A stretch of 57,568 nt of DNA from Corallococcus praedator. Its GTDB lineage: Bacteria; Myxococcota; Myxococcia; Myxococcales; Myxococcaceae. The position numbers and the translations under genes were made by a program. Position 1 is the first letter of the stretch. The number at the start of each line of letters is the position of its first letter. The notes under the pieces are model-generated. The model was not told the DNA's origin. It made no database searches and saw nothing but the letters and a program-made list of their open reading frames with translations. This document shows positions 18,472 through 29,521 of this stretch, piece after piece. Where the stretch lies: positions 1 through 57,568 of the forward strand of contig NZ_RAWI01000013.1 of the NCBI RefSeq assembly GCF_003612125.1. The letters are read 5' to 3'.

Positions 18472-21366
18472 ATGAGCGACGCCCCCTCCCGCAAGGACCT
18501 CGACGCCACCGTCCACCTGCCGCGCACGGAGTTCCCCATGAAGGGGAACCTGTCGCAGCTCGAACCGCGCCTGCTCTCGTGGTGGGCGGAGCGCGGGGTG
18601 TGGAAGCAATTGTTGGAGAAGAACGCGGGCCGTGAGCCCTTCGTGCTGGCGGACGGGCCCCCGTACGCCAATGGCCACCTGCACGCCGGGCACGCGCTCA
18701 ACAAGGTGTTGAAGGACATCGTGGTGAAGTACCGGAACCTCTCCGGACGCCCGTGTGACTTCATCCCCGGTTGGGACACGCATGGCCTCCCCATCGAACA
18801 GGCGGTGGAGAAGCGGCTGAAGGAACAGAAGCTGGACAAGCGCACGCTGTCGCGCGACGCGCTCCTGGAGCGCTGCCGCGAGTACGCGCTGGAGTTCGTG
18901 GACATCCAGAAGGCGGAGTTCCAGCGGCTGGGCGTCTTCGGCTCGTGGGACGCGCCCTACAAGACGCTCGACTTCACCTACGAGGCGCAGGAGGTGCGGG
19001 AGCTGGCCACGTTCGCGCGCCGGGGCATGTTGTACCGCCGCAAGAAGCCGGTGGCGTGGTGCCTCCAGGACCAGACGGCGCTCGCGGAGGCGGAGGTGGA
19101 GTACGCGGAGCACACCTCTCCGTCCGTGTACGTGGCCTTCGACGCGGGGGCTTCGCTCGGTGAGCGGCTGCCGCAGCTGCGCGGCCAGCGCGTGTCCTTC
19201 GTCATCTGGACCACCACGCCCTGGACGCTGCCGGCGAACCTGGCCATCGCGGTGAACCCCACGTTCGAATACGTCTTCTACCGGCTGGAGGACCGCGTCC
19301 TGTGCGTGGCCAAGGACCTGCTGGCGAAGGTGCTGGCGGAGGTGAAGGCGGACGAGCTGGCGGTGAAGCACGTGCAGCTTCCCACCGGGGAGGTGTCGTC
19401 CCCGGCGCTGGTGGACCCCTCGCGCATCCTCGCGTACGCGACGGGCGAGGACCTGGAGCACGTGACGTACCAGCACCCGTTCCTGGAGCGGCAGGGGCGC
19501 GTGCTGCTGGGCGGCCACGTCACCCTGGATGCGGGCACGGGGCTGGTGCACACGGCGCCGGGCCACGGGCAGGAGGACTACGAGGTGGGGCTCGCGTACG
19601 GGCTGGACATCTACAACCCGGTGCGCGCGGACGGCCGCTACGACGACACGGTGGGCGAGGCGCTCGCGGGCCGGCGCGTCTTCGAGGCCAACCCTGTCGT
19701 GCTGGACCTGCTGGTGCAGCGGGGCGCGCTGCTCAATGACAAGTCAGACACCGTCACGCACAGCTATCCGCACTGCTGGCGCTGCCACCAGCCCGTCATC
19801 CAGAGCGCGACCTACCAGTGGTTCATCCCGATGGACGCGGCCTTCCACGGCACGCAGACGTTCCGTCAGGCGGTGCTGGAGCAGGTGGACAAGGTGCGCT
19901 GGGTGCCGTCGTGGGGCCAGTCGCGCATCCGGGGCATGTTGGAGGGCCGGCCGGACTGGTGCATCAGCCGGCAGCGCAGCTGGGGCGTGCCCATCCCCAT
20001 CGCGTACTGCGACGGGTGTGACGACGCGGTGGTGTCTCCGGAGGTGATGGAGCGCGTGGCGGCGGCGGTGGAGAAGGAAGGCGCGGGCGTGTGGTACCGC
20101 ACGCCGGTGAAGGCCTTCCTCGGGGAGGACTTCCGCTGCCCCCGCTGCGGCACGGGAGACTTCCACCGCGAGACGGACATCCTGGACGTGTGGTTCGACT
20201 CCGCGTGCATGGCCTCCGCGGTGCTGGAGAAGCGGCAGCGCGTGCCGGCGGACCTGTTCCTGGAGGGGAGCGACCAGCACCGGGGCTGGTTTCATTCCTC
20301 GCTGCTGGTGTCGGTGGGCGCGCGCGACGTGGCGCCCTACAAGGCGTGTCTCACGCACGGCTTCGTGGTGGATGGCCACGGCGAGAAGATGTCCAAGAGC
20401 CGGGGCAACACGGTGGCGCCGGACAAGGTCATCCAGCAATACGGCGCGGAGGTGCTGCGGCTGTGGGTGGCGGCCAGCGACTACCGCAACGACGTGCGCC
20501 TGTCGGATGCCATCCTCAAGGGGCTGTCGGAGGGCTACCGGAAGATCCGCAACACGCTGCGCTACGCGCTGGGCAACCTGCACGACTTCAACCCGGCGAA
20601 GGACGCGGTGCCGGCGGAGGCGCTGTCGCCGCTGGACCAGTGGGCGCGCGGGCGGCTGTCGCAGGTGGTGACCCGGGTGCGGCAGGCCTATGAGGACTAC
20701 GAGTTCCACCTCGTCTACGCGACGGTGGTGGACTTCTGCGCCAACGACTTGTCCGCCGTGTACTTCGACATCCTGAAGGACCGGCTCTACACGGCGAAGG
20801 CGGACGGGCCCGCGCGCCGGGGGGCGCAGACGGTGCTGCATGAGGTCGTCACCGTGCTGCTGCCGCTGCTCGCGCCGGTGATGAGCTTCACGGCGGAGGA
20901 GGCGTGGCAGCACCTGCCGGGTGAGCACACGGAGAGCGTGTTCCTGGCGGGCTTCCCGGAGCCGAAGGGCGCGATGGCGCCCGGCCTGGCGGAGCGGTAC
21001 GCGAAGCTCTTCGCGGTGCGCAGCGCGGTGCAGGGCGTGCTGGAGGTGGCGCGGCGGGACAAGCGCATCGGTGCGTCCCTGGAGGCTCGCGTGGTGCTGT
21101 CGGCCACTGGCCCGGTGGCGGAGCTGCTCCAGGCGCACCTGTCGGAGCTGCCCGGGCTGTTCATCGTGAGCCAGGTGGAATGGGCACAGACGGCCTCCGA
21201 CGCGGCGACGGCGCTGGATGTGTCCCAGGCGTTCGGTGACGGCGCGTCCCTGTCCGTGGAGGTGCTGCCGGCCCAGGGGACGAAGTGCCCGCGCTGCTGG
21301 GTGTATTCGGAGGCGGTGGGGCAGGGCGACGAGGTGTGCCTCAAGTGTCGGGAAGCGTTGTCCTGA
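18472..21366 (+). CDS. ileS: Isoleucyl-tRNA synthetase
   Basis: A 964-aa class I aminoacyl-tRNA synthetase that charges tRNA-Ile in the cytoplasm. The HIGH-type motif is HAGH at residues 71-74 within PPYANGHLHAGHALNK, and KMSKS is at 639-643. The editing (CP1) domain lies between about 200 and 400, with the family's VIWTTTPWTLPANLA. The C-terminus carries a zinc-finger CPRC/CLKC (KCPRCWVYSEAV), as in bacterial type IleS. Length is close to E. coli IleS (938). In many bacteria ileS precedes lspA; here lspA lies 7 kb downstream. No T-box leader is seen in the short 5' spacer. Confidence 0.97.
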   Translation: MSDAPSRKDLDATVHLPRTEFPMKGNLSQLEPRLLSWWAERGVWKQLLEKNAGREPFVLADGPPYANGHLHAGHALNKVLKDIVVKYRNLSGRPCDFIPGWDTHGLPIEQAVEKRLKEQKLDKRTLSRDALLERCREYALEFVDIQKAEFQRLGVFGSWDAPYKTLDFTYEAQEVRELATFARRGMLYRRKKPVAWCLQDQTALAEAEVEYAEHTSPSVYVAFDAGASLGERLPQLRGQRVSFVIWTTTPWTLPANLAIAVNPTFEYVFYRLEDRVLCVAKDLLAKVLAEVKADELAVKHVQLPTGEVSSPALVDPSRILAYATGEDLEHVTYQHPFLERQGRVLLGGHVTLDAGTGLVHTAPGHGQEDYEVGLAYGLDIYNPVRADGRYDDTVGEALAGRRVFEANPVVLDLLVQRGALLNDKSDTVTHSYPHCWRCHQPVIQSATYQWFIPMDAAFHGTQTFRQAVLEQVDKVRWVPSWGQSRIRGMLEGRPDWCISRQRSWGVPIPIAYCDGCDDAVVSPEVMERVAAAVEKEGAGVWYRTPVKAFLGEDFRCPRCGTGDFHRETDILDVWFDSACMASAVLEKRQRVPADLFLEGSDQHRGWFHSSLLVSVGARDVAPYKACLTHGFVVDGHGEKMSKSRGNTVAPDKVIQQYGAEVLRLWVAASDYRNDVRLSDAILKGLSEGYRKIRNTLRYALGNLHDFNPAKDAVPAEALSPLDQWARGRLSQVVTRVRQAYEDYEFHLVYATVVDFCANDLSAVYFDILKDRLYTAKADGPARRGAQTVLHEVVTVLLPLLAPVMSFTAEEAWQHLPGEHTESVFLAGFPEPKGAMAPGLAERYAKLFAVRSAVQGVLEVARRDKRIGASLEARVVLSATGPVAELLQAHLSELPGLFIVSQVEWAQTASDAATALDVSQAFGDGASLSVEVLPAQGTKCPRCWVYSEAVGQGDEVCLKCREALS

Positions 21367-21431
21367 AGACAGACGTCTCACCCTGAGGGGATGCATGCCC
21401 GTACTTTGGGTGTGTTAGGTCATGGGGCCAC

Positions 21432-24242
21432 ATGCCCCCATTCCTTGGTGACCGTGAAGACAAGGTCCGCGGCAAGAAGGTCTACGGACGCGACTTCAAC
21501 ACGCGAGACCTGGGCTGGGAGGGGGAGTGCCGTCACGCCTACCTGCTTCGCGTCACCTCCGCGGACCGCAAGTATCTGGGTCTGGATGACGCGCGGCTGG
21601 CGGAGGTCTTCGCGATGCTGGAGATCCAGCCGCCGGAGATCTTCCAGGCCGCGGACCTCCACGCGCGCGGTTTCACGGCGCCGTACAGGCAGAAGCCCCC
21701 CGGTGGGGGTGGGGCTCGGACGGTCGTGCACCCGGCCCAGGGGTTGGCGCTGGGGGACAAGAGCGTGGCGCCCGACTTCTTCGGGATGTACTGGCTGACC
21801 CCGCCCGGCGGCTACGCGGACCACATCGGTCAGCCCGTGGCCATCCTCCTGTTCCGCAAGAGCCACGACCTGCGGAAGTTCGCCACCTGGAACCGGGACC
21901 CCAGCCGACATGAAGGCAGCCCGCTGCTGCGCTTCGATGCCAGCTCGCGGGTGGAGTGGCAGCAGGACATCCAGCGGCTCGTCAATCCGCTGCTGGGCGC
22001 CAGGGTCTCCAAGGAAGAGGCCATCTACGGCGCCACCCACTTCATCCGCAGCCAGGTGAAGGACTTCGAATTCTCCTCCCAGGGGCACAAGGACCACGAC
22101 CCCAACGCGCTGGGGCCGGACGTGGACCCCGCGAAGCGGGCCATCAACCTCCAGGCGAACAAGGCACGCGAGGCCATCCGCCGGTCCGTCTCCGAGGAGG
22201 GGATGACCGTGTTGCGCCGCACCTTCTTCAGCCAGAGCATCGATCCGATGTTCATGGAGCTGGAGACGGGCCTCGCCTTTCTCACCCGGGATGGTGAAGG
22301 CAAGCGGGTCCTGCGCATCGCGGCGGGGACGCAGTCTCCGCGCAAGGACCGGGAAGGCGTGGAGACGCTCACCGCCCTGTGGCCCGAGGATGAGGCCCCC
22401 AGGGTCGAGCTGACGACCTATGCGATTGGCGGGGGCTTCGGGGGACGGGACCTCGCCACCTTCCCGATGTACCTGGCCCTGGCGGCCTTCTTCTGCGACG
22501 GGCCCGTGCGCCTGGCTTTTGACCGGTACGAGCAGTTCCTCAGCGGCATCAAGCGACACGCCGCCGTGGTCCAGAACGTGCTGGCCTACGGTCTCAAGGA
22601 CCCCGAGAAGCCGGAGGACGGGTACGTCCTCCACTCGCTCGACTCGACCATCTCCATGGACGGCGGCGGCGTGCTGAACCTCACCAAGCCCGTCGTGCAG
22701 CTGTGTGCCCTCCACGCCGCCGGGCCGTACCGCTTCACGCACAACGCCATCAGCGGTTACGGCATCAGCACGGACGGCGCTCCCTCCGGCTCCATGCGCG
22801 GCTTCGGAATTCCGCAGGCGGCCTTCGCCATCGAGTCCATGATCGACGAGGTCGCGACCACGGTTGGCGTGGATCCCATCGCGTTCCGGCGCGAGAAGCT
22901 GCTCAAGCAGAACGACGTCGACATCACGGGCTTCGAGCTGCGGCACCATCTGGACACCGAGCATCTCTGCGCACTGGCCGCGAAGGAGCCGCTCTGGACC
23001 GGGCGGGAAGCGAAGCGGGCCGAGTACGCCGCCCGGGGCAACGGGCTGGTGAAGTACGGCGTCGGGTTCGCCTGCGCGATGCAAGCGATTGGCACCAGCG
23101 AGGACGCGGTCTTCGCCGAGGTCAGCATCGGTCCGACGGGCGAGGTGACGGTGCGCTCCACCGCCATCGAGATGGGGCAGGGCAGTGAGACCTCGCTCGC
23201 CATCGCCACCCGACCGCTGCTGGGCCGGGATGCGTCCCGGGTCGTCATGGGCGTGCTGGGCCGCTTCGACTCCGAACACATCCGGCTGACCAAGGGCGCC
23301 TACGCCCCGGGCCAGCCGCGGAACACGCCGAAGCTGGACAACACGATGAGTGCTTCGGTGACGGCGTTCTTCCACATCCACGCGGTCGAGGAGGCCGCGC
23401 GGGTCGTCTTCGATCACGGCCTGAAGCCGTGCGCGGCGGCCATCTGGGGTGACGTCCCGGAGACCGCCCACTGGGAGGATGGGAAGCTGGTGGCTCCGGG
23501 CCGTTGCCCCATTCCCATGGAGGAGCTTGCGTCCAGGGCCCACGCCCGGGCGAAGGAGGAGGGGCTGTGCACCGGCGCCATCGTGCACACCTACTACCGC
23601 AACGCGTACGCCTGTTCGGAGTACACCCTGGGGGGCACGACGCGGCTGCGCTACATCGACGGGCTCGCCGTCCTCCACGGAGGCGATGCCGAGGACGTGG
23701 CGGGCTACCAGCACGTCACCCGGGTGGACGTGCCCTATGACGGGGTGGCGAACGACGCGAAGCACCACATCCGGAGCGTCTACGCGTCGGCCGGGCACCT
23801 CATCGCCGTCACGGTGAACACCCGCTCCGGGGTGATTGATGTCGTGGATGCCGTCACCCTGCTCGACGCGGGTGAGGTCCACCACCAGAAGATCCTCGAA
23901 GGTCAGGTGGACGGTGGCTTCGCGATGGGCCTGGGGATGACCCTGTTCGAGAACATCCCTCCGGCGCCCGTCGGCGTGGACGGCCTGCTCAACCTGCACC
24001 GCTATCCGGTCCCCCGGGCGACGCACATGCCTCCTTCGGGCGTGCAGCTGCGGCTGCTGACGCTTCCGCAAGGACAGCAGATCCTGAAGTCCGGCCCTCC
24101 CATCCGGAAGAAGGGGATCGCCGAGGCCGTGATGACCACGGTGATGCCGGCCATCGCGAACGCGGTCGCCCATGCCACGGGAGTACGCCTGAGCGTCCTG
24201 CCCTTCACCCCGGCGCGCGTGTTGGAGGCGCTGAAGCCATGA
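21432..24242 (+). CDS. Molybdenum hydroxylase large subunit (xanthine dehydrogenase/aldehyde oxidase family)
   Basis: A 936-aa molybdopterin-cytosine-dinucleotide subunit. The first 150 residues form a divergent hammerhead domain (KVYGRDFNTRD, HIGQPVAILLF). Cofactor-binding motifs follow: TYAIGGGFGGRD, GSMRGFGIPQAAFAIESM and STAIEMGQGSE. Near the C-terminus, Glu898 in KKGIAEAV matches the catalytic glutamate of this family. It should hydroxylate an aldehyde or N-heterocycle; the substrate is unknown. There is no FAD (medium) subunit gene, so electrons must leave through the small subunit, whose ATG overlaps this stop by 4 bp. No XdhC/MobA-type maturation gene is nearby. The Shine-Dalgarno is weak. 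Confidence 0.88.
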   Translation: MPPFLGDREDKVRGKKVYGRDFNTRDLGWEGECRHAYLLRVTSADRKYLGLDDARLAEVFAMLEIQPPEIFQAADLHARGFTAPYRQKPPGGGGARTVVHPAQGLALGDKSVAPDFFGMYWLTPPGGYADHIGQPVAILLFRKSHDLRKFATWNRDPSRHEGSPLLRFDASSRVEWQQDIQRLVNPLLGARVSKEEAIYGATHFIRSQVKDFEFSSQGHKDHDPNALGPDVDPAKRAINLQANKAREAIRRSVSEEGMTVLRRTFFSQSIDPMFMELETGLAFLTRDGEGKRVLRIAAGTQSPRKDREGVETLTALWPEDEAPRVELTTYAIGGGFGGRDLATFPMYLALAAFFCDGPVRLAFDRYEQFLSGIKRHAAVVQNVLAYGLKDPEKPEDGYVLHSLDSTISMDGGGVLNLTKPVVQLCALHAAGPYRFTHNAISGYGISTDGAPSGSMRGFGIPQAAFAIESMIDEVATTVGVDPIAFRREKLLKQNDVDITGFELRHHLDTEHLCALAAKEPLWTGREAKRAEYAARGNGLVKYGVGFACAMQAIGTSEDAVFAEVSIGPTGEVTVRSTAIEMGQGSETSLAIATRPLLGRDASRVVMGVLGRFDSEHIRLTKGAYAPGQPRNTPKLDNTMSASVTAFFHIHAVEEAARVVFDHGLKPCAAAIWGDVPETAHWEDGKLVAPGRCPIPMEELASRAHARAKEEGLCTGAIVHTYYRNAYACSEYTLGGTTRLRYIDGLAVLHGGDAEDVAGYQHVTRVDVPYDGVANDAKHHIRSVYASAGHLIAVTVNTRSGVIDVVDAVTLLDAGEVHHQKILEGQVDGGFAMGLGMTLFENIPPAPVGVDGLLNLHRYPVPRATHMPPSGVQLRLLTLPQGQQILKSGPPIRKKGIAEAVMTTVMPAIANAVAHATGVRLSVLPFTPARVLEALKP

Positions 24243-25381
24243 CCGAGTCCCTCAAGCGTACCGAGCGCGAATACACCCTCCACATCAATGGCATCCCGAG
24301 GACCGTCGTCGCGTCGGGGGAGGACCTGCTCGTCGACGTGCTGCATGAACAGCTCGACCTCACCGGCACGAAGCTCAGCTGTGGCATCGGCTCGTGCGGG
24401 GCCTGCAAGGTCGTGGCGCAGAAGGCGCCCGGCAGTCCCAAGATGGCCATGCTGGCGTGTTACGCGCGCATGGACTCCATCGAAGGGCTGCACTTCACGA
24501 CGGTGGAGGGACTCCCGGGTCCGGGCGAGCAGCTCCACCCGCTGCAGCGCGAGTTCCTGGAGTGCTATTCCTTCCAGTGCGGGTTCTCCACCCCGGGCTT
24601 CCTGATGGCGGCCGACGTGCTGATGGATCAGCTGGCCCGCAGGCCCATCCCCGTGGCCCAGCTGGACAATCGCATCCGTCAGGCCATCTCCGGGAACGTC
24701 TGTCGTTGCACGGGGTATGTGAAGTACGCGGAGGCCATCAAGAAGACCATCCTCGCGGACCCGCGGCTCACCTGTGAGACGCCGGGGCCAGCGGAGCCGC
24801 AGCGCTCGGTCGTCACCTTCCGGGTGCGCAAGCAGTCCTCGAACGACCTGGAGGAGAAGGCGCTCGTGGGCTTCCTGGACGAGGTGGAGGCGACCATCCG
24901 GTTCGAGGAGTGGCTCCGCCTGGACACCTGCACCGCGCAGGTGAGCGCGAAGACCCGCTCCGTGCGCACGGGTGAGCCGGTCCGCGACTTCAACCTGGGG
25001 AAGTTCTTCTTCAAGACCCTCGAGTCCGTGGACTTCACGCTGGACTCGGTGGACACGCTGGACGGCCGCTACCAACTGGATGCGGTGCCTTTCGGCACGG
25101 CCATCCCGGTGAACATCCGGGGGCGCGTCTGTGCGGCCGGCATCAAGCTGCCGGTGACGGCGGATGCGGTGGTGACGGTGCTGGAGGGCACCAGCCTGCG
25201 CATCACCTCGCGCGCTCCGGTGACGCTCGACATGCGGGACCTGGGCCTTTCCGTGGATTCCTTCGCCAAGGAGTTCTTCCTCCGGCTAGCGCGCACGGTG
25301 GAGATCACCTTCGACCTGGTGCTGGAGAAGAACGAACCCCGGGGCCCGGAAGTGTGGGCCACGGTCCCCCGGAGCCGCTGA
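24239..25381 (+). CDS. [2Fe-2S] subunit of a molybdenum hydroxylase fused to a YceI-like domain
   Basis: A 380-aa protein. Residues 10-80 are a plant-type ferredoxin domain with Cys48, 53, 56 and 74. Residues 85-175 are the second, helical [2Fe-2S] domain with Cys114, Cys155 and Cys157, but the usual QCGFC motif reads QCGFS, so Ser117 replaces one ligand. Residues about 188-375 match the YceI lipocalin-like fold: SVVTFRVRK, a SAKTRSVRTGEPVRDFNLG turn, then SVDFTLDSVDTLDGRYQL. E. coli YceI and relatives bind isoprenoid molecules such as ubiquinone. The fusion suggests electrons from the Mo site pass to a quinone; that is inference. It should function with the overlapping large subunit. The protein has no signal peptide. 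Confidence 0.8.
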   Translation: MTESLKRTEREYTLHINGIPRTVVASGEDLLVDVLHEQLDLTGTKLSCGIGSCGACKVVAQKAPGSPKMAMLACYARMDSIEGLHFTTVEGLPGPGEQLHPLQREFLECYSFQCGFSTPGFLMAADVLMDQLARRPIPVAQLDNRIRQAISGNVCRCTGYVKYAEAIKKTILADPRLTCETPGPAEPQRSVVTFRVRKQSSNDLEEKALVGFLDEVEATIRFEEWLRLDTCTAQVSAKTRSVRTGEPVRDFNLGKFFFKTLESVDFTLDSVDTLDGRYQLDAVPFGTAIPVNIRGRVCAAGIKLPVTADAVVTVLEGTSLRITSRAPVTLDMRDLGLSVDSFAKEFFLRLARTVEITFDLVLEKNEPRGPEVWATVPRSR

Positions 25382-25382
25382 T

Positions 25383-26144
25383 TCAGGTGCCGACGGCTTC
25401 CAGCCTTCGCAGCGTGTCCACCAGGGCCTGCATGCGGTCGTGGTGGGTGCCGGGCCAGAAGACGCGCTGACAGCCGGGACACTGGCGGAAGTGGGAGTGG
25501 CGTCCGGCCACGCCTTCGGGGACGCGGCCCTGCACCTCGTCCGGCGTGGCGGTGGACAGCGGCGCGTTGCAGGCCATGCAGCGGCTGAAGGGCCGCATGC
25601 GCGACGTCAATGCGTAGCGGCGCACCACCTCCACCAACTGGTGCGCGGGATCCGTGGCGCGCGGGAAGTAGCCGTGCTCCACCTCCGAACGCTTGAGCAC
25701 GCCCAGGTCGCGCGTGAGCAGCACGCGCGACTCCTGACGTGACAGGCGCGCCAGATGATCATCCGCGAAGTCGTTGCGCCACAGCGTGTCGAAGCCGAGC
25801 ATCCGCAGGAAGCCCGACAGCCGCCCCAGGCCCACGTCCAGCACGAAGCGAGGCATCTCCGGGAGCGGCGGTCCCACGCGCGCCTCCGGGGGAACACCGG
25901 GCGCCTGGAGTGCGGGGTAGACGACGAGGCTCGTGTCCGGTTGCGCCCGGTGCTCGAAGCCCACCGCTTCGCCGTCCACCAACACCACGTCCACCTCCGG
26001 GTGCGGCGGCCCCAATGACTCGATGAGGTCCTTCACCGAAGGGCTACCCTGCAGGGCATGCGTGAACGCCACGCCCCGGCGCTCCGGCGCGAGGAAGTCG
26101 TTCAGTGCGCCGTGGAAACGCACCGTGAGCTGCCGTGCTGACAT
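25383..26144 (-). CDS. Mut7-C RNase-domain protein with ubiquitin-like N-terminus
   Basis: A 253-aa protein. Residues 1-80 (LTVRFHGALNDFLAPERRG, VDVVLVDGEAVGFEH, DTSLVVYPAL) resemble the ubiquitin-like Mut7-C_ubiq domain. Residues about 97-190 carry the Mut7-C (PIN-like) core: FVLDVGLGRLSGFLRMLGFD, WRNDFADDHL, RVLLTRDLGVLKRS. A zinc ribbon CMAC/CPGC closes the protein. Mut7-C domains are predicted RNases with acidic PIN-like residues (several Asp are visible here). The start ATG is followed directly by the first beta-strand. The gene is convergent with the YceI fusion: the two stops are separated by one base (TGA-T-TCA). Confidence 0.85.
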   Translation of the reverse strand: MSARQLTVRFHGALNDFLAPERRGVAFTHALQGSPSVKDLIESLGPPHPEVDVVLVDGEAVGFEHRAQPDTSLVVYPALQAPGVPPEARVGPPLPEMPRFVLDVGLGRLSGFLRMLGFDTLWRNDFADDHLARLSRQESRVLLTRDLGVLKRSEVEHGYFPRATDPAHQLVEVVRRYALTSRMRPFSRCMACNAPLSTATPDEVQGRVPEGVAGRHSHFRQCPGCQRVFWPGTHHDRMQALVDTLRRLEAVGT

Positions 26145-26295
26145 CGTGGACTCCTCACGTCCCGCTGCGTTGTATCGCTGCGTCGTTGCCTGTTGTGGCG
26201 ATGCCTTTCCTTGAATTCAAGCCTTCCGCAGATACATGCGGATGGGGGCTCTCGGATTCTGCGAAAGGAGCAGCAAAAACCTCACGGGCGGTCAT

Positions 26296-26324
26296 GGGAC
26301 AGCCACCCTGCAAACTTCTATAAT
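26296..26324 (+). promoter_or_regulatory. Candidate sigma-70 promoter of the stalked EEP lipoprotein
   Basis: A perfect -10 box TATAAT (26319-26324) stands out in this GC-rich genome. A -35-like GGGACA (26296-26301, four of six matches to TTGACA) lies exactly 17 nt upstream. The predicted start is near 26331, leaving a leader of about 70 nt before the ATG at 26400. Confidence 0.5.
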
Positions 26325-26399
26325 CACGCGCCAGTCGGCGCGCCGAAGCCGACGGGCCAGCCCCTCGTCCCCCTCGGAAGCAAGGATTCAGGTTCCCGT

Positions 26400-27680
26400 A
26401 TGTCGATGAAGCTCCCCCCGTTTCTCCGCGCCCTCGTGGCGGTGGGGACCCTGGCGACCGCCTGCGGTCCGGGTGATGAGCCGACGAGGCCTCCGGACTC
26501 CGGGACCTCGGTGGATGCAGGAACCCAGAACGACGCGGGGACCGGGACGGATGCCGGCAGCAGCACGGTCGATGCGGGTGGCGGCGGAGAGGACGGCGGT
26601 CGCTCGATCGACGCTGGCCCCGACGCCGATGCGGGCTCCGAGAGCGACGCTGGCACCACGGTGGATGCGGGCACCACGGTCGATGCGGGCACCACGGTGG
26701 ATGCGGGCTCCGAGAGCGACGCTGGCACCACGGTCGACGCGGGCACCACGGTCGACGCGGGCACCACGGTCGACGCGGGCACCACGGTCGACGCGGGCTC
26801 CGGGGACGCTGGCACCACGGACGCTGGCACCACGGACGCGGGCTCTGGCGACGCGGGCACCACGGACGGTGGTTCGGACTCCGATGCTGGCTACACGAAG
26901 ATCCGCATCATGGCGGCCAACATCACCAGCGGTAACGGCCAGGACTACGACCAGGGTCACGGCATCCGGCTGATGCAGGGCGTGAAGCCCGACGTCGTGC
27001 TCATCCAGGAGTTCAACTACAAGGCGAACTCCACGGCGGACATCCGCGAGATGGTCGACACGACCTTCGGCCCGAGCTTCTCGTACTACCGCGAGACCGG
27101 CGCGCAGATCCCCAACGGCATTATCAGCCGCTTCCCCATCATCGAGTCCGGCGAGTGGAAGGACACGCAGGTGTCCAACCGCGACTTCGCCTGGGCGCGC
27201 ATCGACATCCCGGGGCCGCACGACCTCTGGGCCGTCAGCGTCCACCTGCTCACCAGCGGCTCCGGCGTCCGCAACACGGAGGCCACCAACCTGGTGAAGT
27301 TCATCAAGGACAATGTCCGTGAGTCCGACTACCTGACCATCGGCGGCGACTTCAACACCGACAGCCGCTCCGAGTCCTGCCTCACCACCTTCAAGCAGGT
27401 GGTGACGACCGTGGGGCCGCACCCGGTGGACAAGAACAACAAGGACGGCACCAACGCGAGCCGCAGCAAGCCGTACGACCACGTGCTCGTGGACAACGAC
27501 CTGTACCAGTACCGCGTGCCCACCGTGATTGGCGCCAGCAGCTTCGCCAACGGGCTCGTGCTCGACAGCCGCGTCTACACGCCGCTGTCGGAGATCTACC
27601 CGGCGCTGTCCAGCGACAGCGGCGCCTCCAACATGCAGCACATGGGCGTGGTGAAGGACTTCCTCACGCCCAACTTCTAG
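26400..27680 (+). CDS. Endonuclease/exonuclease/phosphatase-family lipoprotein on a 'DAG' repeat stalk
   Basis: A 426-aa lipoprotein (lipobox LATAC, Cys22). Residues about 35-165 are a low-complexity stalk with 20 Asp-Ala-Gly triplets, mostly as TTVDAG or SESDAG hexapeptides. Residues about 170-425 form an EEP/DNase-I-like domain: IRIMAANITSGNG, the metal-binding Glu in VVLIQEFNY, LWAVSVHLL, GGDFNTD, SKPYDHVLV and a final His in NMQHMGVVKD. It may be an extracellular nuclease or phosphodiesterase held away from the membrane; the substrate is unknown. ATG 26400 follows the promoter at 26296, and a second ATG occurs two codons on. A strong hairpin follows its stop. Confidence 0.85.
   Translation: MSMKLPPFLRALVAVGTLATACGPGDEPTRPPDSGTSVDAGTQNDAGTGTDAGSSTVDAGGGGEDGGRSIDAGPDADAGSESDAGTTVDAGTTVDAGTTVDAGSESDAGTTVDAGTTVDAGTTVDAGTTVDAGSGDAGTTDAGTTDAGSGDAGTTDGGSDSDAGYTKIRIMAANITSGNGQDYDQGHGIRLMQGVKPDVVLIQEFNYKANSTADIREMVDTTFGPSFSYYRETGAQIPNGIISRFPIIESGEWKDTQVSNRDFAWARIDIPGPHDLWAVSVHLLTSGSGVRNTEATNLVKFIKDNVRESDYLTIGGDFNTDSRSESCLTTFKQVVTTVGPHPVDKNNKDGTNASRSKPYDHVLVDNDLYQYRVPTVIGASSFANGLVLDSRVYTPLSEIYPALSSDSGASNMQHMGVVKDFLTPNF
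26655..26798 (+). repeat. Eight 18-bp units coding TTVDAG/SESDAG
   Basis: The interval is exactly eight 18-bp units: three ACCACGGT-(C/G)-GA-(C/T)-GCGGGC units, one diverged unit encoding SESDAG, and four more ACCACGGTCGACGCGGGC units. The final four are nearly identical at DNA level, so they look recently amplified. All units keep the reading frame. Not CRISPR: there are no spacers. Confidence 0.85.
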
Positions 27681-28247: not shown

Positions 28248-28880
28248 ATGAAAGCCTCCCTCCGCCTCCTCCTCGTCGTGGTCCTCGCCGTGCTCGCGGC
28301 GGATCAGGTGACCAAGTACCTGGCCGTGTCCCGGCTGACGGAAGCCCTGGATGGCCGCGAGGGCATGGCGCGCGTGTCCGGCTTCCTGAGCGAGCAGAAC
28401 CTGGACAACGACCCTCCGAAGGAGGGCGAGTTCCGGCGCAACACCCGGCCGTACCGCTTCATCGAGGACTACTGGCACTTCCGCTACGTGGAGAACCCGG
28501 GCGCGGCGTGGGGCATGTTCGCCAACCTGCCGGACACCGCGCGCAAGGCGTTCTTCCACGTGGTGAGCCTGGCGGCGCTGGCGTTCATCCTGGTGCTGTA
28601 CCGCCGCACGGAGGCGTCGCAGAAGTCGGTGCGGCTGGCGCTGGCGCTCATCACCGGCGGCGCGCTGGGCAACTTCGTGGACCGGCTCATCCGGGGCTAC
28701 GTCATCGACTTCATCGACTGGCACTGGCGCAACCAGCCGGGCATGCGCTGGCCCACGTTCAACGTGGCGGACGCGGCCATCGTGGTGGGCGTGGCGCTGA
28801 TGCTGCTGGACTCCGTGTGGGTGCGCCGGCCGGAGCCCGTCTCCACCCCGCCGCTCACCCCCCAGAGCCCTCAGCCGTGA
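28248..28880 (+). CDS. lspA: Lipoprotein signal peptidase, first paralogue
   Basis: A 210-aa type II signal peptidase that removes the signal peptide from diacylglyceryl-prolipoproteins in the inner membrane. Four hydrophobic helices and the family motifs are present: AADQVTKYLA (Asp19), RYVENPGAAWGMF (Asn83), GGALGNFVDRL, VIDFIDW and FNVADAAIVVG, so both catalytic aspartates are conserved. Asp19 and Asn83 are 64 residues apart, against about 31 in E. coli LspA, showing a roughly 33-residue insert in the periplasmic loop. It is followed after 32 bp by a second lspA and then lgt, a lipoprotein-maturation operon. Confidence 0.95.
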   Translation: MKASLRLLLVVVLAVLAADQVTKYLAVSRLTEALDGREGMARVSGFLSEQNLDNDPPKEGEFRRNTRPYRFIEDYWHFRYVENPGAAWGMFANLPDTARKAFFHVVSLAALAFILVLYRRTEASQKSVRLALALITGGALGNFVDRLIRGYVIDFIDWHWRNQPGMRWPTFNVADAAIVVGVALMLLDSVWVRRPEPVSTPPLTPQSPQP

Positions 28881-28912: not shown

Positions 28913-29521
28913 GTGCCGCGCAAATACGTCATCCTCCTCGCCCTCACGCTGGGCGTCATCGTGCTGGACCAGTGGACGAAGTACCTGGTCGTGCGGGACC
29001 TCACCACCCGCTTCGACGGGGCCACCACGCTGGGCCAGCGCCTGGGCGCGATGTATTCGCCCGCGGAGGCGGCCGGCCGCTACGGCCTGCACTTCCAGCC
29101 GCGCAGGCACGTGGAGGTGGTGGATGACTTCTTCCGCCTGCGCTACGCGGAGAACCCGGGCGCCGCGTGGGGCATGTTCCGCGACCTGCCCCCCAACGTC
29201 CGCGGCCCGCTCTTCCACCTGGTGAGCCTGGGCGCGGTGCTGCTCATCTTCTTCTACTTCCGGAAGCTCACCGGCACGGACCCCGCGGAGAAGTGGGCGC
29301 TGTGGGGCCTGCCGCTGGTGCTGGGCGGCGCGCTGGGCAACTACATCGACCGGGTGGCCCGGGCCTTCGTCATCGATTTCCTGGAAGCGCATTGGTACGA
29401 CAAGGCCGCCTGGCCGTCGTTCAACGTCGCGGACGCGGCCATCTGCATCGGCGTGGGCATGCTCGTGGTGGACGCCTTCGTCCGCAAGGAGAAGCCCTCC
29501 TCCGAGCCCGCCAAGGCCTGA
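28913..29521 (+). CDS. lspA: Lipoprotein signal peptidase, second paralogue
   Basis: A 202-aa paralogue of the upstream gene with the same motifs: LDQWTKYLV (Asp19), RYAENPGAAWGMF (Asn81), GGALGNYIDRV, VIDFLEAHW and FNVADAAICIG. Catalytic residues are intact. It also has a long insert between Asp19 and Asn81, but the insert sequence differs from that of the first copy. The pair therefore looks like an old tandem duplication with functional divergence. It begins at GTG 28913 with a poor Shine-Dalgarno, which might mean coupling to the upstream copy. A hairpin lies between it and lgt. Confidence 0.94.
   Translation: MPRKYVILLALTLGVIVLDQWTKYLVVRDLTTRFDGATTLGQRLGAMYSPAEAAGRYGLHFQPRRHVEVVDDFFRLRYAENPGAAWGMFRDLPPNVRGPLFHLVSLGAVLLIFFYFRKLTGTDPAEKWALWGLPLVLGGALGNYIDRVARAFVIDFLEAHWYDKAAWPSFNVADAAICIGVGMLVVDAFVRKEKPSSEPAKA

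What the first reader, a model, noticed from the sequence alone, without database searches (positions are those of the whole stretch)
21432..25381. Two-subunit molybdenum hydroxylase with a YceI domain instead of a FAD subunit
The operon has a large Mo subunit and a [2Fe-2S] subunit fused to a YceI-like isoprenoid-binding domain, with a 4-bp overlap and no FAD subunit. In typical enzymes electrons pass via FAD to NAD or O2. YceI relatives hold quinone-like isoprenoids, so the fusion suggests direct Fe-S to quinone transfer, a possible new electron route. This is the strongest candidate here for an undescribed system.
Basis: inference. Interest (0 to 1): 0.7.

Follow-up and report, generated by a model that had tools for sequence, protein, structure and literature searches.

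The report
Molybdenum enzyme with fused lipocalin domain
A few soil bacteria of one genus carry a two-gene molybdenum enzyme without the usual flavin part: its iron-sulfur protein ends in a lipid-holding type of barrel and has one cluster-binding cysteine naturally changed to serine, which hints at an unusual, still untested, route for its electrons.

Summary
Observation confirmed. Window 21432-24242 encodes a xanthine-oxidase-family Mo subunit, overlapping by ATGA a 380-aa Fer2 + Fer2_2 + YceI fusion (24239-25381). YceI is supported by Pfam (35.4 bits, cut-off 23.7) and an AlphaFold2 model: all 21 Foldseek PDB hits at E<=0.001 are YceI/BcnA/BcnB; VIA-align Z up to 18.3, next unrelated fold 8.6. 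No free FAD subunit was found: the genome's single FAD_binding_5 match lies in a fused xanthine dehydrogenase. FAD-lessness is ordinary here: 5 Fer2_2 matches, 1 FAD match. The fusion is patchy: 4 of 195 genomes of the phylum, all Corallococcus, at two sites, under purifying selection. Nearest relatives have a Tat-like start, no YceI and a CXXCH-protein neighbour. New: one ligand of the Mo-proximal [2Fe-2S] cluster is serine in all 4 fused proteins, cysteine in all 83 unfused ones compared. Best reading: a cytoplasmic Mo hydroxylase sending electrons through a serine-tuned cluster to a lipophilic acceptor, perhaps menaquinone, in the YceI barrel. Fusion and serine are shown; ligand and route are inferred.

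The parts
21432..24242 (+). Mo-cofactor (large) subunit, 936 aa, xanthine oxidase family, no export signal seen
   Evidence: Pfam MoCoBD_1 E 1.1e-35, MoCoBD_2 E 1.9e-32; PDB relatives, best quinoline 2-oxidoreductase large subunit; motifs GGGFGG, GQG, Gln301, Glu898
24123..24125 (+). Glu898 of the Mo subunit, at the position of the family's catalytic glutamate (role recalled)
   Evidence: E in 19 of 20 aligned rows; aligned with the E of KGMGE in 1t3q_B
24239..24242 (+). ATGA overlap of the two genes (translational coupling inferred)
   Evidence: sequence; the two reading frames of the G077 copy also overlap
24239..25381 (+). [2Fe-2S] subunit fused to a C-terminal YceI domain, 380 aa
   Evidence: fusion in 4 of 195 genomes
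24281..24469 (+). Fer2 domain, cluster II site (Cys48, 53, 56, 74 all present)
   Evidence: Pfam PF00111 residues 15-77; Cys in 73 of 73 rows
24500..24742 (+). Fer2_2 domain, cluster I site (Cys114, Ser117, Cys155, Cys157)
   Evidence: Pfam PF01799 residues 88-168
24587..24589 (+). Ser117 codon (TCC) where the family has Cys: a ligand position of the Mo-proximal [2Fe-2S] cluster
   Evidence: Ser in 4 of 4 fused proteins; Cys in 71 of 71 unfused rows and in 12 of 12 further proteins, read from 17 other Fer2_2 matches in the same four genomes; pattern search of 195 genomes
24743..24793 (+). short linker between Fer2_2 and YceI (residues 169-185)
   Evidence: gap between the Pfam matches
24794..25321 (+). 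YceI-like lipocalin domain (residues 186-361)
   Evidence: Pfam PF04264 35.4 bits; AF2 model pLDDT 73.4, pTM 0.68; YceI structures are the top hits
18472..21366 (+). upstream flank: ileS; left border of the site that lacks the operon in sister genomes
   Evidence: named ileS from the reading of its sequence (recalled)
25383..26144 (-). downstream flank: Ub-Mut7C + Mut7-C protein, convergent; right border of the site
   Evidence: Pfam

Best explanation
It is a self-contained, cytoplasmic, two-subunit Mo hydroxylase, a variant of the xanthine oxidase family. SHOWN: Mo subunit with conserved active-site motifs and no visible export signal; Fe-S subunit with all four Cys of cluster II; a cluster I site in which one of four Cys ligands is Ser; a C-terminal domain predicted to have the YceI fold; no free FAD partner found in the genome. 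INFERRED: substrate is hydroxylated at Mo; electrons pass Mo -> cluster I (3 Cys + 1 Ser) -> cluster II -> a lipophilic redox ligand held in the YceI barrel, most likely an isoprenoid quinone (menaquinone is recalled as the usual quinone of myxobacteria), so the YceI domain replaces the FAD domain both in the chain and in function. The serine would shift the cluster I potential to suit that acceptor. The unit may derive from an exported enzyme of the type seen in relatives, which stands next to a CXXCH protein.
For: Fusion and domains. YceI fold: 21 of 21 Foldseek PDB hits at E<=0.001 are YceI/BcnA/BcnB proteins; the first 14 VIA-align rows are YceI family, Z 13.0-18.3, with 3q34_A at Z 18.3, 2.2 A, 162 aligned. 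Hydrophobic alternation in the strands, reached by 0 of 10,000 shuffles. YceI proteins contain isoprenoids including ubiquinone-8, and YceI is fused C-terminal to cytochrome b561 in most alpha-proteobacteria looked at there, i.e. another redox protein-YceI fusion (PMC9113575 passages). No free FAD subunit: PF00941 has 1 match in G000, in a polypeptide with FAD_binding_5, CO_deh_flav_C, hammerhead and MoCoBD_1. The position after Fer2_2 equals that of the FAD domain in xanthine oxidoreductase, where electrons go Mo, Fe/S I, Fe/S II, FAD (PMC3509653, passages and section 4.1). Purifying selection on all parts. Ser goes with the fusion. Relatives with a Tat-like start and a CXXCH neighbour.
Against: No ligand is known and pocket size could not be measured from the model; the alternation test fits any beta-barrel or sandwich core. 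The linker is about 17 residues by Pfam borders, against residues 166-225 in human xanthine oxidoreductase, so the barrel may not reach cluster II as FAD does. Quinones sit in the membrane while this protein shows no export or membrane signal. Ser at cluster I could cripple electron flow instead of tuning it; a review says that other cluster-ligand changes in rat xanthine oxidoreductase gave insoluble or monomeric protein (PMC3509653 section 4.1). D. gigas aldehyde oxidoreductase lacks the FAD domain and is still an enzyme. The YceI domain is divergent: 17-19% identity to five and 12% to one of the genome's six other YceI domains, and the H of the RDxHL motif is N.
Confidence: 0.4

Rival explanations
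1. The YceI barrel handles the substrate, not the electrons: it captures a hydrophobic molecule, for example a lipid-derived or polyketide aldehyde or heterocycle, and hands it to the Mo site, while electrons leave cluster II to an ordinary soluble carrier.
For: The YceI protein BcnA binds varied hydrophobic molecules (Nile red, polymyxin B, alpha-tocopherol), and mutants in bcnA and in an aldehyde reductase gene show more lipid peroxidation (PMC9113575 passages). D. gigas aldehyde oxidoreductase lacks the FAD domain (PMC2997495 passages). The short linker does not demand closeness to cluster II.
Against: The Mo site is in the other polypeptide, and no geometry links the barrel to it. The fusion is to the electron-transfer subunit, not to the Mo subunit. 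No substrate is known.
Confidence: 0.3
2. The YceI domain is a structural or membrane-docking piece that stabilises the two-subunit enzyme; it carries no ligand that matters, and a separate carrier takes the electrons.
For: The YceI domain is divergent; the genes stand alone, at two unrelated places; relatives manage without YceI.
Against: Purifying selection on the YceI part is similar to that on the Mo subunit, and the predicted barrel fold with its alternating hydrophobic face is kept.
Confidence: 0.2
3. Cluster I is lost or non-functional, so the protein is a degenerating or repurposed enzyme in which the Mo hydroxylase chain no longer works.
For: One of the four cluster I ligands is not Cys in any of the four fused proteins. 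Other cluster-ligand changes in rat xanthine oxidoreductase gave insoluble or monomeric protein (PMC3509653 section 4.1).
Against: Seven other cluster Cys, Gln301 and Glu898 are intact. dN/dS is 0.13-0.37 for all parts, and Ser is kept through a synonymous change TCC to TCG. The equivalent Cys was changed to Ser in rat xanthine oxidoreductase (PMC3509653 Table 2), and serine ligands on FeSI and FeSII were studied in quinaldine 4-oxidase (title in the reference list of PMC5746545); the results of these were not seen.
Confidence: 0.1

Closest known systems
Xanthine oxidase family Mo hydroxylases (xanthine oxidoreductase, quinoline 2-oxidoreductase, CO dehydrogenase)
   Same: MoCoBD domains, active-site motifs, Fer2 + Fer2_2 subunit
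   Different: No FAD domain or subunit; Ser in place of one cluster I Cys; YceI in the place of the FAD domain; every NCBIfam match is far below its cut-off
FAD-less members: D. gigas aldehyde oxidoreductase (PMC2997495 passages) and isoquinoline 1-oxidoreductase IorAB (two-subunit, recalled)
   Same: Mo plus two [2Fe-2S] sites without FAD (recalled for the Fe-S part)
   Different: Those have no YceI domain (recalled); Ser at this ligand position was not seen in any of 83 unfused Fe-S proteins compared here
Mo subunit / Fe-S subunit / CXXCH-protein operon of genus g3 in the same family (G064, G066; loci L021, L022)
   Same: Closest Mo subunit found, 34-35% over nearly the full length; Fe-S subunit 49-52%
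   Different: Tat-like start (below the Pfam cut-off); Cys at the cluster I position; no YceI; a protein with two CXXCH motifs next door
YceI / BcnA bacterial lipocalins (PF04264)
   Same: Pfam match over cut-off and same predicted fold
   Different: Known ones are periplasmic or secreted (PMC9113575 passages, for BcnA and BcnB); this one is a cytoplasmic fusion to a Fe-S protein
Cytochrome b561-YceI (LcoA-BcnA) fusions of alpha-proteobacteria (PMC9113575 passages)
   Same: A redox protein with a C-terminal YceI domain
   Different: Membrane haem protein with the lipocalin tethered to it, not a cytoplasmic Mo/Fe-S enzyme

Membership tests
Xanthine oxidase family (Mo hydroxylase) | MoCoBD_1 and MoCoBD_2 domains in the Mo subunit | tested here: met
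   far above cut-off
Xanthine oxidase family (Mo hydroxylase) | Active-site glutamate and glutamine, GGGFGG and GQG motifs | tested here: met
   Glu898 E in 19 of 20 rows, Gln301 Q in 19 of 20 (rows: six of this family and relatives, and 14 of the 69 other loci that gave a long enough Mo ORF); GQG is GNG in G064 and G066; roles recalled
Xanthine oxidase family (Mo hydroxylase) | N-terminal a/b hammerhead domain (PF01315) of the Mo subunit | tested here: inconclusive
   no Pfam match even at E<=10; the N-terminal part aligns with the relatives from residue 11, and L022 also lacks a match at E<=1
Xanthine oxidase family (Mo hydroxylase) | Eight Cys ligands for two [2Fe-2S] clusters | tested here: not met
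   seven of eight; Ser117 replaces the second Cys of the cluster I motif; hence filed as a variant
FAD-containing Mo hydroxylases (three-part enzymes) | FAD_binding_5 subunit or domain | tested here: not met
   none in the operon; the genome's only PF00941 match is in a fused xanthine dehydrogenase
Isoquinoline 1-oxidoreductase type (IorAB) | Two-subunit FAD-less enzyme with its own sequence signature | not tested
   no IorAB sequence was compared; resemblance in subunit make-up is recalled
YceI family | Match to PF04264 over its curated cut-off | tested here: met
   35.4 bits, cut-off 23.7
YceI family | YceI lipocalin-like barrel fold | tested here: met
   AF2 model pLDDT 73.4; Foldseek and VIA-align top hits all YceI
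YceI family | Isoprenoid or quinone in the barrel | not testable with these tools
   needs purified protein; the hydrophobic alternation is only compatible with it
YceI family | Export to periplasm (usual, not strictly defining) | tested here: not met
   by reading of the N-termini: ORF 1 opens only 15 codons before its start (936 of 951) and shows no signal; ORF 2 starts inside the overlap; no signal-peptide program was run

The most novel reading that the evidence does not exclude
A Mo hydroxylase that reduces a lipid-soluble quinone directly from its [2Fe-2S] centre, with the quinone held in a fused lipocalin barrel in place of FAD, and with a naturally serine-ligated Mo-proximal cluster whose potential is tuned for this route.
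Probability: 0.28. Interest if true: 0.8.

Novelty: new variant of a known kind. Interest (0 to 1): 0.6.

Why it matters
FAD is the usual exit for electrons in this enzyme family, and the function of bacterial lipocalins such as YceI is called unclear in a 2022 paper (PMC9113575 passages). An enzyme in which a YceI barrel takes the chain position of FAD offers a direct biochemical assay for what a YceI domain does with its ligand. The natural, fusion-linked Cys-to-Ser change gives a ready-made case for how ligand choice tunes a [2Fe-2S] relay, which has been studied in this family with laboratory mutants.

Tried and rejected
Chance fusion or frameshift: rejected. The fusion is one reading frame in all four genomes with the operon.

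A FAD subunit elsewhere: not found. The second FAD domain of G089 (C688) sits beside its own Fer2_2.

Ser117 as a common variant: rejected within reach. A DNA pattern for QCG[FY]S-x-[AP]-G (TCN serine codons only; AGY codons and other surroundings such as QCAYC not searched) hits 9 of 195 genomes. Four hits are the fusion genes; the five others lie in reading frames without Fer2 or CRC motifs; the backwards control pattern hit 3 times. The Cys form hits 163 of 195 genomes. In one search a first regular expression gave false oddities (L041, L046, L047, L088, L091); the alignment corrected it. Of the 17 other Fer2_2 matches in the four genomes only the 12 with a fetched locus were read.

Fusion in viral contigs: none. 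P0003 against plasmids: no match. Two more viral scans for YceI rows gave nothing. Other phyla could not be searched as whole genomes. The 84,980-species collection was scanned once with two short peptide patterns, so fusions with other motifs would be missed.

Full-length model of the fused protein: not run, because MAFFT laid the YceI rows on the Fe-S part (A6). A promoter and terminator scan of 21200-25600 found nothing beyond chance.

Papers (10 searches): no held paper has YceI + xanthine dehydrogenase + isoprenoid or YceI + 2Fe-2S + fusion. This covers only openly licensed PubMed Central text.
Full report
WHAT IS THERE. Two overlapping genes on the + strand, 21432-24242 and 24239-25381, joined by ATGA. 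The first is a 936-aa Mo-cofactor subunit with MoCoBD_1 and MoCoBD_2. Its nearest solved relative by sequence is the large subunit of quinoline 2-oxidoreductase (E 1.1e-24), but it lies far below every NCBIfam cut-off listed, so the substrate is unknown. GGGFGG, GQG, Gln301 and Glu898 are present; Gln301 is Q and Glu898 is E in 19 of 20 aligned rows, of which 14 come from the 69 other loci, the rest giving no Mo ORF long enough. The second gene has Fer2 (residues 15-77), Fer2_2 (88-168) and YceI (186-361, 35.4 bits, cut-off 23.7). ileS (named by reading) ends 65 bp upstream on the same strand, and a convergent Ub-Mut7C/Mut7-C gene lies downstream, so the system is two genes only.

THE YCEI DOMAIN. 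phmmer of the domain against PDB chains finds nothing at E<=10. A profile made with it, its three fused homologues and seven ordinary YceI proteins (six of this genome, one of G066) finds TT1927b, E. coli YceI and BcnA; that search says more about the other rows than about this domain. A first AlphaFold2 model with 12 sequences gave pLDDT 59.2; its 15 PDB hits at E<=0.001 are YceI-type too. A second with 34 sequences gave pLDDT 73.4 and pTM 0.68. Foldseek of the second model: all 21 hits at E<=0.001 are YceI, BcnA or BcnB, TM-score 0.58-0.70 by query. VIA-align: 3q34_A Z 18.3, rmsd 2.2 A, 162 aligned; 2x32_A and 2x34_B, titled polyisoprenoid binding domain, Z 17.0, 2.4 A, 161 aligned; first unrelated row Z 8.6. 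That fits a barrel with a greasy inside, but any beta core would do so; pocket volume was not measured.

NO FAD PARTNER FOUND. In the window's genome (G000, completeness 99.96, contamination 3.71) PF00941 has one match. It lies in a polypeptide, cut by the contig start, that also carries CO_deh_flav_C, the hammerhead domain and MoCoBD_1 (L098). In G083 and G077 the single PF00941 match and a Fer2_2 match share one open frame of 1349 aa, i.e. a fused xanthine dehydrogenase; G075 and G086, which lack the operon, also have one match in a frame of 1385 or 1349 aa. G089 has two, one beside its own Fer2_2. Fer2_2 has 5 matches in G000, 7 in G089 (one partial), 4 in G083 and 5 in G077. So most Fer2_2 proteins of these bacteria have no FAD partner, and that feature alone is ordinary.

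A SERINE AT CLUSTER I. Human xanthine oxidoreductase binds Fe/S I by C113-x2-C116 and, 32 residues on, C148-x1-C (last number garbled in the held text), and electrons go Mo, Fe/S I, Fe/S II, FAD (PMC3509653, passages and section 4.1). The fused protein has Cys114-x2-Ser117 and Cys155-x-Cys157. Ser stands there in all four fused proteins (codons TCC, TCC, TCC and TCG). Among 73 aligned rows the 71 unfused ones have Cys; the two Ser rows are the window protein and the C. terminator copy L024. The other seven ligand positions are Cys in 73 of 73. Of the 17 other Fer2_2 matches in the same four genomes, the 12 read all have Cys. Across 195 genomes of the phylum a TCN-serine pattern for QCG[FY]S-x-[AP]-G hits 9; four are the fusion genes and five are unrelated reading frames (backwards control: 3 hits); the Cys form hits 163 genomes. 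The change therefore goes with the fusion. The equivalent Cys115 of rat xanthine oxidoreductase has been changed to Ser by others (PMC3509653 Table 2), and serine ligands on FeSI and FeSII were studied in quinaldine 4-oxidase (title seen in a reference list). I did not see the outcome of either. The same review says changes of Cys43 or Cys51 gave insoluble or monomeric protein, so loss of function is a real alternative.

WHO HAS IT. The YceI part matches 5 of 195 genomes of the phylum. Four are the fusion, all in one genus; the fifth (G066, E 8.7e-4) is a separate YceI protein with a signal-like start (L023). The G089 contig of 68,961 bases matches a Corallococcus terminator CA054A contig in length and content, so the genus is Corallococcus. 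A scan of one genome for each of 84,980 species with two short peptide patterns gave 70 loci. Only C. terminator carries the tail; the other 69 Fe-S frames end 0-23 residues after the match. In G000, G089 and G083 the operon sits between ileS and the Mut7-C gene. In G077 the match ends of these two are 52 bp apart and the operon lies elsewhere (C1:7494681). They are 10-15 bp apart in G075, G079 and G081, 551 bp in G086, and about 2.5 kb in G076, G087 and G088, in each case without the operon. So it is an accessory unit found at two places. dN/dS against G089, G083 and G077: Mo subunit 0.29, 0.27, 0.36; Fe-S part 0.13, 0.18, 0.23; YceI part 0.23, 0.21, 0.37. All parts are kept by selection.

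WHERE IT CAME FROM. The nearest relatives found, in genus g3 (G064, G066), have a Mo subunit with an RRQFLK or RRQILK Tat-like start, a Fe-S subunit with no YceI, and a protein with two CXXCH motifs next to them (the Tat and haem matches are below Pfam cut-offs and rest on reading the sequence). The Corallococcus enzyme shows no export signal in any of four copies by reading. The simplest account is that an exported enzyme with a haem acceptor became cytoplasmic and gained YceI; no tree was built and the direction is inferred.

HOW IT MAY WORK. YceI lipocalins have been found with octaprenyl compounds or ubiquinone-8 in the barrel, one from N. meningitidis holds ubiquinone-8 when purified, and YceI is often encoded beside or fused to cytochrome b561, which could reduce the quinone (PMC9113575, passages). 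Here YceI stands where the FAD domain stands in xanthine oxidoreductase. Together with the missing FAD partner this makes a quinone or similar ligand the likeliest electron exit (0.4). Against it: the linker is about 17 residues by Pfam borders, compared with residues 166-225 in the human enzyme; the protein looks cytoplasmic; the domain is divergent; and no ligand is known. Substrate delivery (0.3), a purely structural role (0.2) and a broken relay (0.1) remain open.

VERDICT. Observation confirmed; interpretation partly supported. The FAD-less state is ordinary, the YceI fusion is rare and real, and the fusion-linked serine is a new point that makes the electron route worth testing.

Noticed in passing
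window 28248-28880 and 28913-29521: Two tandem signal peptidase II genes (Peptidase_A8, both far over cut-off), followed by an ORF that reads like a prolipoprotein diacylglyceryl transferase (recalled, not tested).
   Followed up: partly
window 25383-26144 (-): Protein with an N-terminal Mut7-C ubiquitin-like domain and a C-terminal Mut7-C RNase domain, on the far side of the same junction with ileS in all 11 genus members looked at (window, L018, L019 and L139-L146).
   Followed up: partly
interval between ileS and Mut7-C in G086, G087, G088, G076 (L139, L141, L142, L144): The same junction is 0.55 or about 2.5 kb long in these genomes, without the Mo operon: possibly a spot for changing cargo; contents not read.
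   Followed up: no
L118-L127, L147-L204 (IMG/VR contigs): Many contigs filed as viral encode YceI proteins (10 loci, 66, partly the same); possible auxiliary genes or host contamination.
   Followed up: no
L021, L022 (G064, G066): Protein with two CXXCH motifs beside a Mo hydroxylase with a Tat-like start, without a Pfam match over cut-off (L022 tested): a candidate unassigned cytochrome acceptor.
   Followed up: partly
window 26193-27680: ORF with a long low-complexity DAGT/DAGS-rich stretch before its C-terminal part.
   Followed up: no
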